From a methanogenic archaeon mixed culture ISO4-G1 (GTDB taxonomy: Archaea; Thermoplasmatota; Thermoplasmata; Methanomassiliicoccales; Methanomethylophilaceae), in the NCBI GenBank assembly GCA_001563305.1, contig CP013703.1:1351773-1415772 (forward strand): a stretch of 64,000 nucleotides of DNA, in the 5' to 3' direction. Shown here in pieces: positions 47,024-54,196 of this stretch (position 1 is its first letter; the number at the start of each line of letters is the position of its first letter). The notes beneath the pieces were generated by a model. The model made no database searches. It saw only the letters and a program-made list of their open reading frames with translations, and was not told the origin of the DNA. The position numbers and the translations under genes were made by a program.

Positions 47024-48097
47024 ATGAACGATGTTACGGCCGATGTCGACCAAGACAAGCTGGGGGTACTGAAGCTCAAGAAGAGAGCGACCCTTTACAT
47101 CCTGGCAGTCACCGTGATGACATTGACCATAGCGTTGTATTCGATCACCTACAACTCCTCGGGGGTGACCGTAGGCGAGGTCTACGGCACCCTCGTAAAC
47201 CAATTATTCCCGGACACCTTCGACATACCGGACAAGACCCAGTACATCGTGATGAGGGTCTACGCACCGCGCGTGTTCATGGCCATACTCGTCGGTATGA
47301 TCCTGTCCATGTGCGGATGCATCACACAGACGATCCTGAAGAACCCCCTTGCAACGCCATACACGCTGGGTGTGTCCTCCAGTGCATCGTTCGGTGCCGG
47401 TTTGGCGATAATAGCCGGGATATCCGCATTCGCGGGAAGCCTGGGACTCATACTAAACGCGTTCCTCTTCTCCATGATACCGGCCGCCATCATCCTGATC
47501 ATTGCCTCCAGGAAGAACATGATGACGACCACCATGATCCTGATCGGGATATCCCTATCCTACATGTTCAGCGCGGCCAACACGCTGATGCAGTACTTCG
47601 GGAACGCGGATGCGGTGAAAACGGCGATGTTCTGGTCCGTGGGAGACCTGAACGGCGCCATGCTCTCGCAGGTACCCTATGTGCTCATCACGGTAATCAT
47701 CACGATCATCGCCGCTTTCATACTCATGAAGGATATCGATATCATGAGAATGGGGGATGATACGGCCTCGTCCCTCGGTGTGAATGTCCGTATGGTCCGC
47801 ACCGGATCGATCGTCCTTGCATGCTTCTCCACCGCCGTCGCCGTGAGTTTCGTCGGTGCCATAGGATTTATCTGTCTGTTGGGACCACAGATATCCAGGA
47901 TGATCGTGGGAGGGAACATGAAGTACCTCTTCCCGGCATCCATGGTCACCGGGGCGTTGCTGCTGACGCTTGCGGATCTTGCTGCCAAAACGGTGCTGGC
48001 CCCCGTCATACTGCCCGTAGGGGCAATCACAGCCCTTGTCGGTTCCCCGGTTTTGATCTACCTGCTTGTGAAGAACAGAAACATGGTGGTAAGCTGA
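47024..48097 (+). CDS. FecCD-family ABC transporter permease
   Basis: 357 residues with about ten membrane helices and family motifs RVFMAILVGMILSMCGCITQ, NPLATPYTLGVSSSASFGA and GAIGFICLLGPQISRMIVGG. With the divergent ATPase and upstream binding protein it forms an importer for iron-siderophore, cobalamin or another metal cofactor. Close linkage to larC-larB-larE makes nickel or corrinoid supply worth considering, but substrate cannot be read from sequence. Confidence 0.9.
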   Translation: MNDVTADVDQDKLGVLKLKKRATLYILAVTVMTLTIALYSITYNSSGVTVGEVYGTLVNQLFPDTFDIPDKTQYIVMRVYAPRVFMAILVGMILSMCGCITQTILKNPLATPYTLGVSSSASFGAGLAIIAGISAFAGSLGLILNAFLFSMIPAAIILIIASRKNMMTTTMILIGISLSYMFSAANTLMQYFGNADAVKTAMFWSVGDLNGAMLSQVPYVLITVIITIIAAFILMKDIDIMRMGDDTASSLGVNVRMVRTGSIVLACFSTAVAVSFVGAIGFICLLGPQISRMIVGGNMKYLFPASMVTGALLLTLADLAAKTVLAPVILPVGAITALVGSPVLIYLLVKNRNMVVS

Positions 48098-48927
48098 ACC
48101 CCGAAACAAAGAGGATCTGCGACGAGTGGAAATCCGAAAGGGAAAAGCACCCGTTCTACGGTGAGAATGCCGACGAGACGTGCCAGTACGCTCTGTGGGA
48201 TGATGTGTCGAAAACGTATTCCGATAAGGGCTACAACATCATAGCGGATGATATCGTGAAGATACTGAGGACCGAAGACATCCTCAGAAAGGACCGTACC
48301 GTCATGGACATAGGCTGCGGTCCTGGCACATATGCGTTCCGCATATCGCCTCTCGTCAAGGAAGTCACATGCATCGACAGCAGCTGGCCTATGTTGGGAC
48401 GTGTCAAATCCGAATCTGCAGATAGGCATGCGGACAACATCAGCGTGACCCTGTGCGACTGCAAGGGGATTCCCGATGACCTCATCTGCGATGTGGCCTT
48501 CTCGTCCCTCTGTCCGCCGATGAACGATCCGAAGATGATCCTCTCGATGGAAAGACATGCCAGAGAATGGTGCGTCTACGTCTCGTCCGCGAAGACCAGG
48601 CCCGGCATCGAGACCGAGATCTGGAAGGAGCTGGGGTGCGACTATTCATACGGAGGTTACATGACCTCTTATCCGGATTCCTTCCTGAAATCCATAGGAA
48701 GGGAAACTTCCCTCGTTTTCCTCGAGCAGAGGAACACCGAGACAATCCCATTGGAGAATTGCATCTCAACATTCAGACGTAAGATATCCAGATTCAGACC
48801 TATCACCGAAAGGGAAGAACAGGCGATACGTACAGTGGTATCACGTCATGCCGACGGCGATACCGTTATCCTCGATTCGAACAGCCGTATGGGCCTCCTG
48901 TACTGGAGACCGAACGTCACTCTTTGA
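48094..48927 (+). CDS. SAM-dependent methyltransferase (probable CTG start)
   Basis: About 277 residues. Motif I is VMDIGCGPGTYAFRI, followed by CIDSSWPM and a later acidic region, in a class I methyltransferase fold. No ATG, GTG or TTG is placed well at the front of the frame; CTG at 48094 overlaps the permease stop (CTGA) and has GGTGGT three bases upstream. It follows the transporter genes and ends 11 bp inside larC. Similar methyltransferases often follow metal-cofactor transporters in methanogens; the substrate is unknown. Confidence 0.75.
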   Translation: MNPETKRICDEWKSEREKHPFYGENADETCQYALWDDVSKTYSDKGYNIIADDIVKILRTEDILRKDRTVMDIGCGPGTYAFRISPLVKEVTCIDSSWPMLGRVKSESADRHADNISVTLCDCKGIPDDLICDVAFSSLCPPMNDPKMILSMERHAREWCVYVSSAKTRPGIETEIWKELGCDYSYGGYMTSYPDSFLKSIGRETSLVFLEQRNTETIPLENCISTFRRKISRFRPITEREEQAIRTVVSRHADGDTVILDSNSRMGLLYWRPNVTL

Positions 48928-50092
48928 AGCGAACGGCCCTTCTGATCTCATCCACCGTGACACCGTTCTCCGCAGCCAGGCGGACAAGGTCATCATGTTC
49001 CGGTTTGCATTTGCGGACCCCGTATCCATCAGATATCTTCACGCGGACCTGCCCGTATTCGGTATCGACCGTCTCTTTCCTGGAGACCATCTCATACCTA
49101 TCGGCCTTCCATGTCCTGATTCCAATGGTGGTGGTGTTCCTCAGAATCGCTTTTGCCAGCCTGTCCCTGTCCTCGTGACGGCACAGGCAGGTGAGCATGT
49201 GCCCGGGCCTGCCCTTCTTCATAATGACCGATGTGATCATCGCGTCAAGGGCGCCCTCGCTGAGAAGCGTGTCGATGACCGAACCGAGGTCCTCGGGGGT
49301 CATGTCGTCGATGTTGCAGTTGAGGACATCCACCTCGGGCATGGCATCCTTGGCGGTACCTATGAACGCCCTCAGGACGTTGGGTATCCCGTAGTCCCTC
49401 CTGCCCAGTCCGCAACCGATGTCGTCGATGACCATGGAAGGTCTCTGACCGAATGTGCCAGCAAAGTGCTTCACAATCGCTACGCCCGTCGGTGTGGCGA
49501 ACTCCCCCTCGACGTCTCCCGCATAGCACGGGATGCCTTTAAGCAAGAAGGCAGTGGCCGGTGCGGGTATAGGAAGCTCCCCGTGGGCGCACATCACCGT
49601 CCCGTACCCTGTACGGATCGGGGATACTATGATCTGGTCAGGAGACAGCTCCTCGATCAGCATGCAGTCCATGACTATGTCCGCGATCGCGTCGAGCATC
49701 CCGACCTCGTGGAAATGGATCTCCGAAACGGGTTCGCCGTGGACCTTTGATTCCGCCTCGGCGATATCCTTGTAGATCCCTATCGCATTATCCTTCACCG
49801 AATCGGAGACATTCAATTCCCTGATGATCTGGAGGACCTCGTCAAGACTCCTGTGGGAATAACATACGCAATGCCCGGGTTCGTCCTCCTCCTTGCCGTC
49901 AATGAAGACCTTCATGCTCGTTCCGCAGATGTGATGCTTCTGGGCTTTCTCCCTAACAATCCTGACCCCGGGGATGCCGATGGATGCGGCCCTCGCCTGG
50001 ATGTCGAATGATTCCGGTATCAGGTCTGACAACGCACCCATGATCATGTCCCCGGCCACGCCTGAACCGCAATCCAGATAGAGGACCTTCAC
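48917..50092 (-). CDS. larC: Nickel-pincer cofactor nickel insertase LarC
   Basis: 391 residues with the LarC opening VKVLYLDCGSGVAGDMIMGA, EIHFHEVGMLDAIADIV in the middle and DVLNCNIDDMTPEDLGSVID in the C-terminal part. LarC inserts nickel into the pincer nucleotide with CTP. It is encoded as one open frame, unlike the LarC1/LarC2 split of some bacteria. The GTG start at 50092 overlaps the larB stop (GTGA). Confidence 0.93.
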   Translation of the reverse strand: MKVLYLDCGSGVAGDMIMGALSDLIPESFDIQARAASIGIPGVRIVREKAQKHHICGTSMKVFIDGKEEDEPGHCVCYSHRSLDEVLQIIRELNVSDSVKDNAIGIYKDIAEAESKVHGEPVSEIHFHEVGMLDAIADIVMDCMLIEELSPDQIIVSPIRTGYGTVMCAHGELPIPAPATAFLLKGIPCYAGDVEGEFATPTGVAIVKHFAGTFGQRPSMVIDDIGCGLGRRDYGIPNVLRAFIGTAKDAMPEVDVLNCNIDDMTPEDLGSVIDTLLSEGALDAMITSVIMKKGRPGHMLTCLCRHEDRDRLAKAILRNTTTIGIRTWKADRYEMVSRKETVDTEYGQVRVKISDGYGVRKCKPEHDDLVRLAAENGVTVDEIRRAVRFKE

Positions 50093-50838
50093 TGCTTCAC
50101 CTTCCTGTCGATCAGGGATGCGATGTAGCCTCCCCCGAAACCATTGTCGATGTTCACCACGCTGACCGTGGATGCGCATGAGTTCATCATGGCCAGCAGC
50201 GCTGTCAATCCTTCGAAGGATGCCCCGTAACCGACTGAGGTCGGAACGGCTATGACAGGAACATCCACAAGACCCCCTACCACGCTGGGAAGCGCACCTT
50301 CCATGCCTGCGGCGACGACTACCGCGGATGCACCCATGATCTTGTCCGAACCGGACAGCAGGCGGTGTATTCCTGCGACGCCTGCATCGAACATCCTCTC
50401 GACCCTGCATCCCATGACCTCCGCGGTCACCGCGGCCTCCTCGGCCACGGGCATGTCGCTGGTGCCTGCGGAAACAACGCAGATGTAGCTTCTGCGCTCC
50501 TTCTCAGGTATCTTCCCGATGATGCATATCTTGGGGACCGGACGAAATTCGGCATCCAATCCGCTGGACAAGGCCAGCTTGTAGGTCTCCTCCGGACAGC
50601 GCGTAATCATGACACAATCCGAACCGTTCTCCATCAATGTGGAGGCGATCCTGACGGACTGCTCGGGGGTCTTGCTCGCACCGTAGATGACCTCCGAAAC
50701 GCCCTGCCTGACCCTTCTCTGGGTATCGACCTTGGCGAAACCCAGATCGACGAACGGCCTCGTACGGAGCATGCGCTCCGCGTCCTCCACGGACAGTGTA
50801 CCGTCCCTCACGGCCTCAAGGATCTGCTTCGGTTCCAT
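50089..50838 (-). CDS. larB: Nickel-pincer cofactor biosynthesis carboxylase LarB
   Basis: 249 residues with EVIYGASKTPEQSV, VVSAGTSDMPVAEEA and AVPTSVGYGASFEGLTAL, matching LarB, a PurE-like enzyme that carboxylates and dephosphorylates nicotinate adenine dinucleotide. Its 5' end overlaps the larE end by 31 bp and its 3' end overlaps larC by 4 bp, so the three form one operon in the order larE, larB, larC. Confidence 0.93.
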   Translation of the reverse strand: MEPKQILEAVRDGTLSVEDAERMLRTRPFVDLGFAKVDTQRRVRQGVSEVIYGASKTPEQSVRIASTLMENGSDCVMITRCPEETYKLALSSGLDAEFRPVPKICIIGKIPEKERRSYICVVSAGTSDMPVAEEAAVTAEVMGCRVERMFDAGVAGIHRLLSGSDKIMGASAVVVAAGMEGALPSVVGGLVDVPVIAVPTSVGYGASFEGLTALLAMMNSCASTVSVVNIDNGFGGGYIASLIDRKVKQ

Positions 50839-51602
50839 CGGTGAAACTCCCTCACACCGTATGAAACTGAATCATAGTATTTCAGTAGTATCTCTTCGAT
50901 ATCCTTCCTCTTGGCCTCCAGAAGGTCCGACTGATACTTCAGAATCTCAAGTCTGGCACTGTTGGAGACCGTACGCACCCTTATGCCCCTGAAACCGAGG
51001 TCGCGGATCTCCCTCTCTGCCCTGCAGGTGCGCTCCAGGAGGGGTGCGGTTATGACCGTTCCCGTGGGAATGCGCGTGGCCAAACAGGAATCCGAGGGCA
51101 TGTCCCATGTCGGGAGCCCGGCCTCGCGCGACAGGTTCCTGATGTCCTCCTTGGTGAGTCCGCTGTCCCTCAGCGGCGACAGTATCCCCATCTCCGAGGT
51201 CGCCCTCATGCCGGGTCTCGAATCCGCATCATCCGATGCGTTGGTACCGTCCATCACGGCCTTCCTTCCGTCTGCCTGGGCGGTGTCGGTTATCAGCTTG
51301 AACACTGCCTTCTTGCAATGATAGCAGCGGAGCTCGTCGTTCCTCACTATCTCCCCGATGGACAGGGGATCGATCCGGAGCACCCTCAGGTTGTATCCGA
51401 ACTCGACGGCCATGATCCTGGCCCGCTCCAGTTCCTCGTCCGTCTGGAACGCACCCTTGACGAAATACGGGGCCACATCCATCCCCAGACGGGAGCATGC
51501 GTACAGGAGGTAGACGGAATCCGTCCCGCCCGAGAAGGCCAATGCTGGTCTGGGGATCCTCTCGAGGGTCTGCCTGAGCCTGTCCGGTATCGTGTCGGCC
51601 AT
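50808..51602 (-). CDS. larE: Pincer cofactor sulfur transferase LarE
   Basis: 264 residues with PP-loop ALAFSGGTDSVYLLYAC (about 19-35), ELRCYHCKKAVF near 107-118, MDGTNASDD and MPSDSCLATRIPTG. LarE adds sulfur to the dicarboxylated intermediate. RCYHC plus SC gives three conserved Cys, consistent with the type that carries a 4Fe-4S cluster instead of sacrificing one Cys, as known from Thermotoga LarE. The start MADTIPDRL is chosen; an ATG six codons upstream is possible. Confidence 0.9.
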   Translation of the reverse strand: MADTIPDRLRQTLERIPRPALAFSGGTDSVYLLYACSRLGMDVAPYFVKGAFQTDEELERARIMAVEFGYNLRVLRIDPLSIGEIVRNDELRCYHCKKAVFKLITDTAQADGRKAVMDGTNASDDADSRPGMRATSEMGILSPLRDSGLTKEDIRNLSREAGLPTWDMPSDSCLATRIPTGTVITAPLLERTCRAEREIRDLGFRGIRVRTVSNSARLEILKYQSDLLEAKRKDIEEILLKYYDSVSYGVREFHRWNRSRSLRP

Positions 51603-51702
51603 CCTTCCTCCTCCGCGCATACATGGGCGGACGCGTTTTAATACGTGTTGCAGGCCCTTTTTACGGATATACGTACGCGCAATTGGTGTCCCCGGGCTCA
51701 TG

Positions 51703-52482: not shown

Positions 52483-53328
52483 TCAAAGACCGCCACGGAT
52501 CGTATCGGCCAGTTCCCTGACCTCGTCGTCGGACATGCCGATCGTAGGGAAGAACACCGGGAGCTCGAACTGGGAAACATCGACGTCCTTCATGCCGTCC
52601 AGATCCGTTCCCATGACGATGCCCAGGGCCTTCTTCTGATCATCCCTGGAGGAATCGAACTCCCTCACATATCCGTCATAGTTGCGCAACTCCGACAGGT
52701 CGCCCTCGCCCCTCGCCAGCACCCTGCATCCGCGCTTCATCATAAGCCATGCGGACACCAAGGCCCTGTCCGTACCGTCGATGTATGCGATGACCTTGCC
52801 CTGGGTCCCCACCGGGAGGCCCGCGTGGCATCTGATGTAGTCCTGGAAGATGAAGGCGCGGTTGTCCCGGGCCTCGACGTAGAAGACCTTGTCCGGGTCG
52901 GTGAGGTCCACCTTCAAGCCCTTGTCCTCGTTGGCGAGGAAGATGGCGGAGCCGATCTCCCTTCCCATGTCGAGACTTGTGTATCCCTGCGAACCCTCCC
53001 TGCGGGCCTTGACCGCGAAGGACTCCCCCTCGGAAAGCCTTCCCTTGGAGTATCCTGCGGCAGTCTGGCACATGTCATCCATCTTGGAGGTGCACTCCTC
53101 CGCGACCGACATCGAGGCGATCCCGAAGACCTTCCTCAGGGACCTTGCGGCGGCATCTATGTCTGTGGCCTCGACATAGAACCTGGCGCCCTTGTTGGTG
53201 ACCAGGGCCTCGACGCCGTCGTTCATGAGCATGTTCAGCATGTTGTCCTTCAATGTGCTCTCGAACCTTCTGCGGACCGGTGCGCTCTTCAGACCGATCT
53301 CGGCGTACCTGATAAGTAATATAGCCAC
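52483..53328 (-). CDS. ThiI-like tRNA-binding protein with a lost PP-loop
   Basis: 281 residues. The N-terminal ferredoxin-like and THUMP domains of ThiI are intact (LLIRYAEIGLKSAPVRRRF; FQDYIRCHAGLPVGTQGKV). The next segment keeps the ThiI frame (SAWLMMKRGCRV; LPVFFPTIGMSDDEVRELA), but the PP-loop SGGIDSP is replaced by IDGTDRA (183-189) and the domain is about 100 residues short with no catalytic Cys. 4-thiouridine synthesis by this protein alone is therefore unlikely. The start is GTG and divergent from the TauE gene. Confidence 0.8.
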   Translation of the reverse strand: MAILLIRYAEIGLKSAPVRRRFESTLKDNMLNMLMNDGVEALVTNKGARFYVEATDIDAAARSLRKVFGIASMSVAEECTSKMDDMCQTAAGYSKGRLSEGESFAVKARREGSQGYTSLDMGREIGSAIFLANEDKGLKVDLTDPDKVFYVEARDNRAFIFQDYIRCHAGLPVGTQGKVIAYIDGTDRALVSAWLMMKRGCRVLARGEGDLSELRNYDGYVREFDSSRDDQKKALGIVMGTDLDGMKDVDVSQFELPVFFPTIGMSDDEVRELADTIRGGL

Positions 53329-53374: not shown

Positions 53375-54196
53375 ATGGAATTACTGATCCTGTTGGGACT
53401 TATCGCCCTGGGCGCAGGCGCGGGCGTCATGGGGGCCCTGTTCGGCCTCGGAGGCGGAGTAATATTCGTCCCCGTCCTGATGCTCGTGTTCGGCATGGCC
53501 CCTGCGGAGGCGGCCGCCGTCAGCCTTGTGGGTATCGTCGCGGGATCAGTCGGAGCGTCGAGCGTGTTCGTGGAGAAGGGCCTTGCGAACGTCCGTCTAG
53601 GGCTGCTTCTGGAGGTCACCACGACCGCGGGAGCGATTGCCGGTGCGCTGATAGCGGGCTACATGCAGGAATGGGCCCTGAGCCTCGTATTCTGCGGTGT
53701 GATGATCTACAGTGCCCTGCGCATGATCCTGAGTCCCGAGAAAGTCGTCGAACCCAACGGGAACGGCGGACGTCTGAGCTTCGAATACAACGACGAGGCC
53801 AAGGGGGAGAAGATAGCCTACGAGGTCCAGAATGTCAAGGCAGGCAGCCTGGCCTGCGTCTTCGCAGGGATGCTGTCATCGATGACCGGTGTCGGGGGCG
53901 GGGCCATCAAGGTCCCCGTGATGAACCTGATCATGCACGTCCCGATGAAGGCTGCCAGCTCCACCAGCAGCTACATGATCGGGATCACCGCGTTCTCCGG
54001 TGCGATAACCTACCTGTTCAGCGGGATCCTCGACCTCCAGTTCGCGGGAGGCGTGGCCATCGGTGCGTTCCTGGGAGCGATCCTCGGATCGCATCTCGCC
54101 AGGAGGACCAGCACCGCCCATCTGAGGAAGTACTTCTCCGTGGTCCTGTTCCTGATGTCCGCGCTCGTCCTGCTACGCGTGGGAGGGATACTGTGA
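53375..54196 (+). CDS. TauE/SafE-family sulfite/organosulfur exporter
   Basis: 273 residues with about eight helices in two related halves, each opened by a GGG motif: ALFGLGGGVIFVPVLML and SSMTGVGGGAIKVPVMNL. Family members move sulfite, sulfolactate or similar anions. A DUF1634 gene follows after two bases, a frequent pairing. Substrate is not known. Confidence 0.85.
   Translation: MELLILLGLIALGAGAGVMGALFGLGGGVIFVPVLMLVFGMAPAEAAAVSLVGIVAGSVGASSVFVEKGLANVRLGLLLEVTTTAGAIAGALIAGYMQEWALSLVFCGVMIYSALRMILSPEKVVEPNGNGGRLSFEYNDEAKGEKIAYEVQNVKAGSLACVFAGMLSSMTGVGGGAIKVPVMNLIMHVPMKAASSTSSYMIGITAFSGAITYLFSGILDLQFAGGVAIGAFLGAILGSHLARRTSTAHLRKYFSVVLFLMSALVLLRVGGIL

What the first reader, a model, noticed from the sequence alone, without database searches (positions are those of the whole stretch)
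52483..53328. ThiI homologue with a destroyed PP-loop and shortened catalytic domain
The THUMP half is fully conserved, and the segments before and after the catalytic loop still align with ThiI. Yet SGGIDSP reads IDGTDRA, about 100 residues are missing and no catalytic Cys remains. The frame is intact, so this is not a fresh pseudogene. It may work as a tRNA-binding partner of a separate sulfurtransferase or have gained a new function.
Basis: partly seen in the sequence, partly recalled or inferred. Interest (0 to 1): 0.62.

Follow-up and report, generated by a model that had tools for sequence, protein, structure and literature searches.

The report
Two-part tRNA-sulfur enzyme, tRNA-holding half
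This archaeal gene makes only the tRNA-gripping half of the enzyme that puts sulfur on position 8 of tRNA; the sulfur-inserting half is a separate gene elsewhere in the same genome, and the split recurs across many archaea, including a protein solved in 2005 whose activity has never been shown.

Summary
Window 52483-53328 (-) encodes 281 aa: an intact ThiI ferredoxin-like + THUMP half, then a shrunken, catalytically dead PP-loop domain. Orthologues occur in 75 of 76 near-complete genomes of the order. The PP-loop letters vary, but GLPxGxQG, AWLMMKRGC and PTxGM are conserved and dN/dS is well below 1, so it is neither a pseudogene nor a sequencing error. The missing activity is encoded elsewhere in the genome: a separate protein that is a ThiI PP-loop domain alone, with SxGIDS, CxxC, GQVASQTL and the third Cys intact. 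73 of 76 genomes carry both halves; only 2 of 147 carry a single-chain version. In some relatives a second copy of the pair is adjacent, or fused in one chain, and its two halves form a matching clade in both trees. Thermococcus evolved the same split independently, as a tight operon with no full-length ThiI. The best structural match is PH1313 (1VBK), of unconfirmed activity. I read it as a two-subunit ThiI: a pseudoenzyme/tRNA-presenting subunit pairs with an active Fe-S PP-loop subunit, comparable to Ctu2/Ctu1. Complex formation and s4U8 synthesis are inferred, not shown.

The parts
52483..53328 (-). whole gene: THUMP/pseudo-PP-loop subunit of a two-part ThiI, 281 aa, GTG start
53107..53319 (-). 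[quoted passage not shown]
   Evidence: PF22025, 6.7e-15
52846..53085 (-). residues 82-161, THUMP domain (tRNA 3'-end binding in ThiI)
   Evidence: PF02926, 8.2e-13; the only ThiI-type THUMP in the genome
52798..52821 (-). residues 170-177 GLPVGTQG, THUMP-to-PPase linker; Gly170 = T. maritima Gly168, which contacts Asp319 of the other subunit
   Evidence: Gly170 42/42 in the order; ungapped match to 4KR6; contact described in PMC4041423
52486..52833 (-). residues 166-281, degenerate, shortened PP-loop pyrophosphatase domain
   Evidence: AlphaFold2 model with strand-helix-strand core; best fold match 1VBK
52765..52785 (-). residues 182-188 YIDGTDR in the place of the SGGxDS PP-loop
52726..52749 (-). 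residues 194-201 WLMMKRGC, conserved helix end with an invariant Cys201
   Evidence: Trp 41/42, Cys 42/42

Best explanation
This is the tRNA-presenting pseudoenzyme subunit of a heteromeric (two-gene) U8-tRNA 4-thiouridine synthetase. Its NFLD-THUMP half grips the acceptor stem and 3' end of tRNA. Its dead, trimmed PP-loop domain is kept as a docking platform for the catalytic subunit, the stand-alone ThiI PP-loop protein at G000:C1:121004-121579(-). That subunit adenylates U8 with ATP and inserts sulfur using a CxxC + C Fe-S cluster. [quoted passage not shown] Shown here: architecture, loss of motifs, purifying selection, presence of the complete catalytic half, co-occurrence, adjacency, fusion, matched paralogous pairs, independent recurrence. 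Inferred: physical complex, docking through the pseudo-PPase domain, s4U8 product, Fe-S cluster, stoichiometry.
For: The own genome holds one stand-alone ThiI catalytic domain (PF02568, 198 bits, positions 5-196) and no full-length ThiI; the window gene is its only ThiI-type THUMP. In the order, S-x-G-x-D-S, CxxC, the third Cys and the RPLIGxDK Asp are each 67/67 in the catalytic subunit. Window-gene orthologues in 75/76 genomes at least 90% complete; stand-alone catalytic half in 74 of these 76, both halves in 73; only 2 of 147 genomes reach the full-length ThiI cut-off in one frame. Second pairs are overlapping, co-directional ORFs (L088, L089, L090, L091) or divergent neighbours (L087), and are fused in one chain in L085 (512 aa, THUMP-pseudo 16-284 then catalytic 297-496). 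These second pairs, apart from L087, form one clade with support 0.999 in both trees; tree distances correlate r=0.859 (maximum of 2000 permutations 0.357). dN/dS is well below 1 in both halves. Thermococcus L137/L138: a 311-aa THUMP-pseudo protein overlapping a complete catalytic gene, no full-length ThiI in those genomes. Gly170 is kept 42/42 in the pseudo subunit, while the Asp it would touch is 67/67 in the catalytic subunit and lost in the pseudo subunit (S/T 35/42), mirroring the Gly168-Asp319 inter-subunit contact (PMC4041423).
Against: In this genome the two genes are far apart, so adjacency comes only from relatives. G057 lacks the THUMP gene, and G062 and G132 lack a listed catalytic gene (possibly assembly gaps). 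Tree correlation partly reflects shared species history. The Gly-Asp argument is a single contact transferred from a bacterial structure. PH1313 crystallised as a dimer of itself, so a homodimer of this subunit is possible.
Confidence: 0.86

Rival explanations
1. The protein is a general tRNA-binding adaptor that serves another PP-loop or editing enzyme (for example NcsA/TtuA, or the LarE-like protein encoded two genes away) rather than the ThiI catalytic domain.
For: NFLD-THUMP modules serve several enzymes; the fold search also hits Trm14, Trm11 and the C8 deaminase CDAT8. A LarE-like PP-loop gene lies at 50808-51701.
Against: Operons and fusions join this subunit to the ThiI catalytic domain. 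LarE was found near only 3 of 30 orthologues within about 1.5 kb. The remnant domain is ThiI-type.
Confidence: 0.05
2. The subunit is a regulator or chaperone that holds tRNA for other purposes; the stand-alone catalytic domain works by itself and makes s4U8 without it.
For: Stand-alone PP-loop thiolases such as NcsA/TtuA act without a THUMP domain (own knowledge), and the catalytic half is a complete ThiI PPase domain.
Against: ThiI positions U8 by measuring from the CCA end with the THUMP domain (PMC4041423); near-universal co-occurrence and fusions would be unexplained.
Confidence: 0.06
3. Decaying ThiI pseudogene.
For: PP-loop and catalytic Cys are lost.
Against: Open frame in the orthologues except one with a TGA inside, dN/dS well below 1 in both halves, conserved scaffold motifs, confident compact fold (mean pLDDT 88.5).
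Confidence: 0.01
4. The pair makes a thio-modification at another position or on particular tRNAs only (for instance the second paralogous pairs), not s4U8 generally.
For: Several genomes carry two diverged pairs, which suggests a division of labour.
Against: NFLD-THUMP and linker motifs are the ThiI ones; the window genome has only one pair and no other ThiI.
Confidence: 0.06

Closest known systems
PH1313 of Pyrococcus horikoshii (PDB 1VBK)
   Same: Best sequence (2.7e-21) and fold match (7.8e-25, TMq 0.80); NFLD-THUMP plus a smaller PP-loop domain lacking conserved ThiI residues; activity never confirmed (PMC9957541).
   Different: By the NFLD-THUMP tree PH1313 falls with Thermococcus ThiI, away from the window protein, so its reduction looks independent; its own partner gene in P. 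horikoshii was not examined here.
ThiI/TtuI single-chain 4-thiouridine synthetase (T. maritima 4KR6, B. anthracis 2C5S, M. maripaludis)
   Same: NFLD, THUMP, GLPxG linker and PP-loop domain fold; the two genes together carry every part.
   Different: Two chains instead of one; the THUMP chain has a dead PP-loop domain; by inference heteromer instead of homodimer.
Ctu1/Ctu2 (Ncs6/Ncs2), eukaryotic U34 thiolase
   Same: Active PP-loop Fe-S subunit plus a diverged subunit without the cluster cysteines, proposed to orient the tRNA (PMC10067955).
   Different: Different PP-loop subfamily, different tRNA position; Ctu2 has no THUMP domain (own knowledge).
NCBIfam NF006222 (PRK08349, 'hypothetical protein')
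   Same: Model that best matches the partner catalytic subunit (5.9e-60; the Thermococcus partner is over its cut-off).
   Different: Annotated without function; the window genome's partner falls below its curated cut-off (202.5 against 251).

Membership tests
ThiI/TtuI (TIGR00342), window protein alone | whole-model match over the curated cut-off | tested here: not met
   135.7 bits against 264.5; positions 1-200 of 373
ThiI/TtuI (TIGR00342), window protein alone | NFLD + THUMP domains | tested here: met
   PF22025 and PF02926 over cut-off
ThiI/TtuI (TIGR00342), window protein alone | SGGxDS PP-loop | tested here: not met
   IDGTDR; variable in the order
ThiI/TtuI (TIGR00342), window protein alone | catalytic Cys (Cys344) or archaeal CxxC + C | tested here: not met
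   regions deleted; Cys167 matches T. maritima Cys165, shown to play no role (PMC4041423)
ThiI/TtuI as a two-gene enzyme (window gene + L001 1450-2187) | all domains and motifs present between the two chains | tested here: met
ThiI/TtuI as a two-gene enzyme (window gene + L001 1450-2187) | s4U8 formation in tRNA | not testable with these tools
   needs biochemistry
ThiI/TtuI as a two-gene enzyme (window gene + L001 1450-2187) | dimerisation through PPase domains, THUMP in trans to the active site | tested here: inconclusive
   linker Gly / Asp complementarity and fusions, no model of the complex
PH1313-type ThiI-like protein | NFLD-THUMP + reduced PP-loop domain with lost motif | tested here: met
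Trm14/Trm11 methyltransferases, CDAT8 deaminase | methyltransferase or deaminase domain after THUMP | tested here: not met
   only the THUMP part matches; the C-terminal part is a PP-loop remnant

The most novel reading that the evidence does not exclude
Archaea evolved, at least twice independently (Thermoplasmatota and Thermococcales), a heterodimeric pseudoenzyme-plus-enzyme form of ThiI, a prokaryotic counterpart of Ctu1/Ctu2; both halves, including the solved structure PH1313 and the 'hypothetical protein' family PRK08349, thereby receive a function, and genomes with two diverged pairs may thiolate different tRNAs or positions.
Probability: 0.75. Interest if true: 0.66.

Novelty: new variant of a known kind. 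Interest (0 to 1): 0.57.

Why it matters
It explains how a whole archaeal order can keep ThiI function although nearly none of its genomes has a gene that passes the ThiI cut-off. It offers a testable role for a crystal structure whose activity has not been confirmed since its release in 2005 (PH1313), and for a stand-alone PP-loop family named 'hypothetical protein'. It also provides a natural separation of the tRNA-measuring and sulfur-inserting functions of ThiI, useful for dissecting its mechanism, and a parallel case to the poorly understood Ctu2/Ncs2 subunit.

Tried and rejected
Sequencing error or frameshift: rejected, the same architecture is conserved in the order. Fresh pseudogene: rejected. 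LarE-like neighbour as partner: not conserved next to the gene. Papers describing a split ThiI: none found in the held library; the key 2022 paper on archaeal U8 sulfurases is not held, so prior mention there cannot be excluded. s4U8 data for this group: none found. Region G198:C40:1-2 was a placeholder request without use.

Full report
What is there. The gene at 53328..52483 (-) encodes 281 residues from a GTG start. Residues 4-74 are the ThiI ferredoxin-like domain and 82-161 the THUMP domain, both far over their curated cut-offs; only 31 positions of the ThiI catalytic model are matched, at 174-204. TIGR00342 stops at position 200 of 373 and scores 135.7 bits against a cut-off of 264.5. The tail is a shrunken PP-loop domain: the first strand, loop, helix and second strand (YIDGTDRALVSAWLMMKRGCRV) are followed, after an internal deletion, by a block (residues 236-277) that profile comparison places on GDSLGQVASQTL...RPLIGLDKxEI of the catalytic domain (85%, E 5.8e-6). 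The CxxC region and the C-terminal active-site Cys region are absent.

It is not decay. Orthologues are found in 75 of 76 genomes of the order that are at least 90% complete, 38 to 80% identical. Against its nearest relatives dN/dS is 0.07-0.15 for the NFLD-THUMP half and 0.14-0.33 for the pseudo-PP-loop half; close pairs elsewhere in the order give 0.02-0.09 and 0.08-0.14, apart from one nearly identical pair (L037/L038) with too few changes to measure. Across 42 orthologues Gly170, Pro172, Gly174, Gly177, Ala193, Met197, Arg199, Gly200, Cys201, Gly240, Pro257, Pro261 and Met265 never vary, while the PP-loop itself does (IDGTDR, IDGSDR, VD-DDR and so on). An AlphaFold2 model from 26 sequences is confident (mean pLDDT 88.5, pTM 0.84) and matches PH1313 best (1VBK, E 7.8e-25, TM 0.80), then B. 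anthracis and T. maritima ThiI.

The missing half. The window genome (one 1.59 Mb contig) has one other strong ThiI match, at 121004-121579 (-), which is about 310 kb from the window gene if the contig is a circle (1.28 Mb along it otherwise): a protein that is the catalytic domain alone, with MSNGIDSP, CVMC, MGDSLGQVASQTL, RPLIGLDK and NGC. The only further PF02568 match is a frame with an LSGGVDSS PP-loop, apparently GMP synthase (my reading). Of the genome's two THUMP matches, the window gene is the only ThiI-type one; the other (L004) looks like a tRNA methyltransferase. In 67 catalytic subunits of the order, Ser, Gly, Asp and Ser of the PP-loop, both Cys of CxxC and the third Cys are each 67/67. 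CxxC + C is the set that binds the essential Fe-S cluster in methanogen ThiI (PMC5372739).

The two halves belong together. (i) By my count, 73 of the 76 near-complete genomes have both, one only the catalytic gene (G057) and two only the THUMP gene (G062, G132; possibly assembly gaps). (ii) In five genomes a second pair lies side by side: overlapping co-directional ORFs in L088, L089, L090 and L091, divergent neighbours in L087. (iii) In L085 both are fused in one 512-aa chain, THUMP-pseudoPP first and catalytic domain second; L086 looks the same but with a break near the start. Two Candidatus Methanolliviera genomes carry 506- and 513-aa chains of the same layout. (iv) The second pairs with the L085 fusion, but not L087, form one clade with support 0.999 in both the THUMP tree and the catalytic tree; because these are paralogues, species history alone does not explain this. 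Overall tree-distance correlation is 0.859, against at most 0.357 in 2000 permutations, though much of that is shared ancestry.

It is wider than this order. Across 117 genomes drawn from the phylum, many families show separate halves, whereas several lineages keep single-chain ThiI and some show no match. In Thermococcales, most loci recovered hold a full ThiI, often with an extra stand-alone catalytic gene downstream. L137 and L138 hold a 311-aa protein reading LSGPNSAV in the PP-loop and shortened like PH1313, overlapping an intact catalytic gene, and those two genomes have no full-length ThiI. L133 looks like a half-way stage: a full-length ThiI with one Cys of CxxC and part of GQVASQTL gone, next to an intact catalytic gene. 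In the NFLD-THUMP tree L137/L138 nest among full-length Thermococcus proteins (support 0.841 for the joining node), PH1313 falls at the base of that group, and the Thermoplasmatota proteins lie elsewhere, with the Methanolliviera fusions among them. So the split arose at least twice. PH1313 is described in a 2023 review as a ThiI-like protein of unconfirmed activity with a smaller PP-loop domain (PMC9957541).

How it most likely works. In T. maritima ThiI the tRNA is held by NFLD and THUMP of one subunit and U8 is placed at the active site of the other; the dimer interface is mainly PPase against PPase, and linker Gly168 contacts Asp319 of the other subunit (PMC4041423). Gly168 corresponds to the invariant Gly170 here (alignment); Asp319 is the Asp of RPLIGxDK (alignment), 67/67 in the catalytic subunit, but S or T in 35 of 42 pseudo subunits. 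A pseudo/active heterodimer thus retains one productive half of the ThiI dimer: the dead domain stays because it is the docking surface, and it can lose the ATP and Cys parts. This step is inference; no complex was modelled or measured. The closest functional parallel is Ctu1/Ctu2 for U34, where Ctu2 lacks the cluster cysteines and is proposed to orient the tRNA (PMC10067955).

Status. New variant of a known kind. I found no description of a two-subunit ThiI in the held library, but the principal 2022 paper on archaeal U8 sulfurases is not held, so absence of prior notice is not proven. The partner family is named 'hypothetical protein' in NCBIfam.

Noticed in passing
window 48917-51701 (-): Genes resembling LarC (nickel insertion protein, PF01969), LarB (AIR carboxylase-like) and a LarE-like PP-loop protein with CxxC (CYHCK) lie together: a nickel-pincer cofactor cluster in an archaeal genome, beside a FecCD-like permease at 47024-48097. 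LarC and LarB are backed; the LarE-like protein gave no Pfam match.
   Followed up: partly
window 52726-52728 (Cys201 of the gene at 52483-53328): Cys201 (KRGC) is invariant in 42 of 42 order members although the catalytic cysteines are gone; in Thermococcales the position is mostly Val. Role unknown.
   Followed up: partly
window 53375-54196 (+): A TauE/SafE-type transporter gene is divergently placed next to the THUMP gene in about two thirds of the 30 orthologous loci examined, and L15e lies on the other side in most; the sulfur link may be chance.
   Followed up: partly
L133 1905-3668: Thermococcus paralvinellae assembly: full-length ThiI with a partly lost active site next to an intact stand-alone catalytic gene, an apparent intermediate in the split.
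   Followed up: partly
L087, L088, L089, L090, L091, L085: Several genomes of the order carry a second, diverged pair of the two ThiI halves as neighbours, operon or fusion; what distinguishes its target from the first pair is unknown.
   Followed up: partly
families f21 and f27: Sixteen genomes of two phylum families show no ThiI match at all while their relatives have diverged separate halves, suggesting repeated loss of s4U8 or divergence beyond detection.
   Followed up: no
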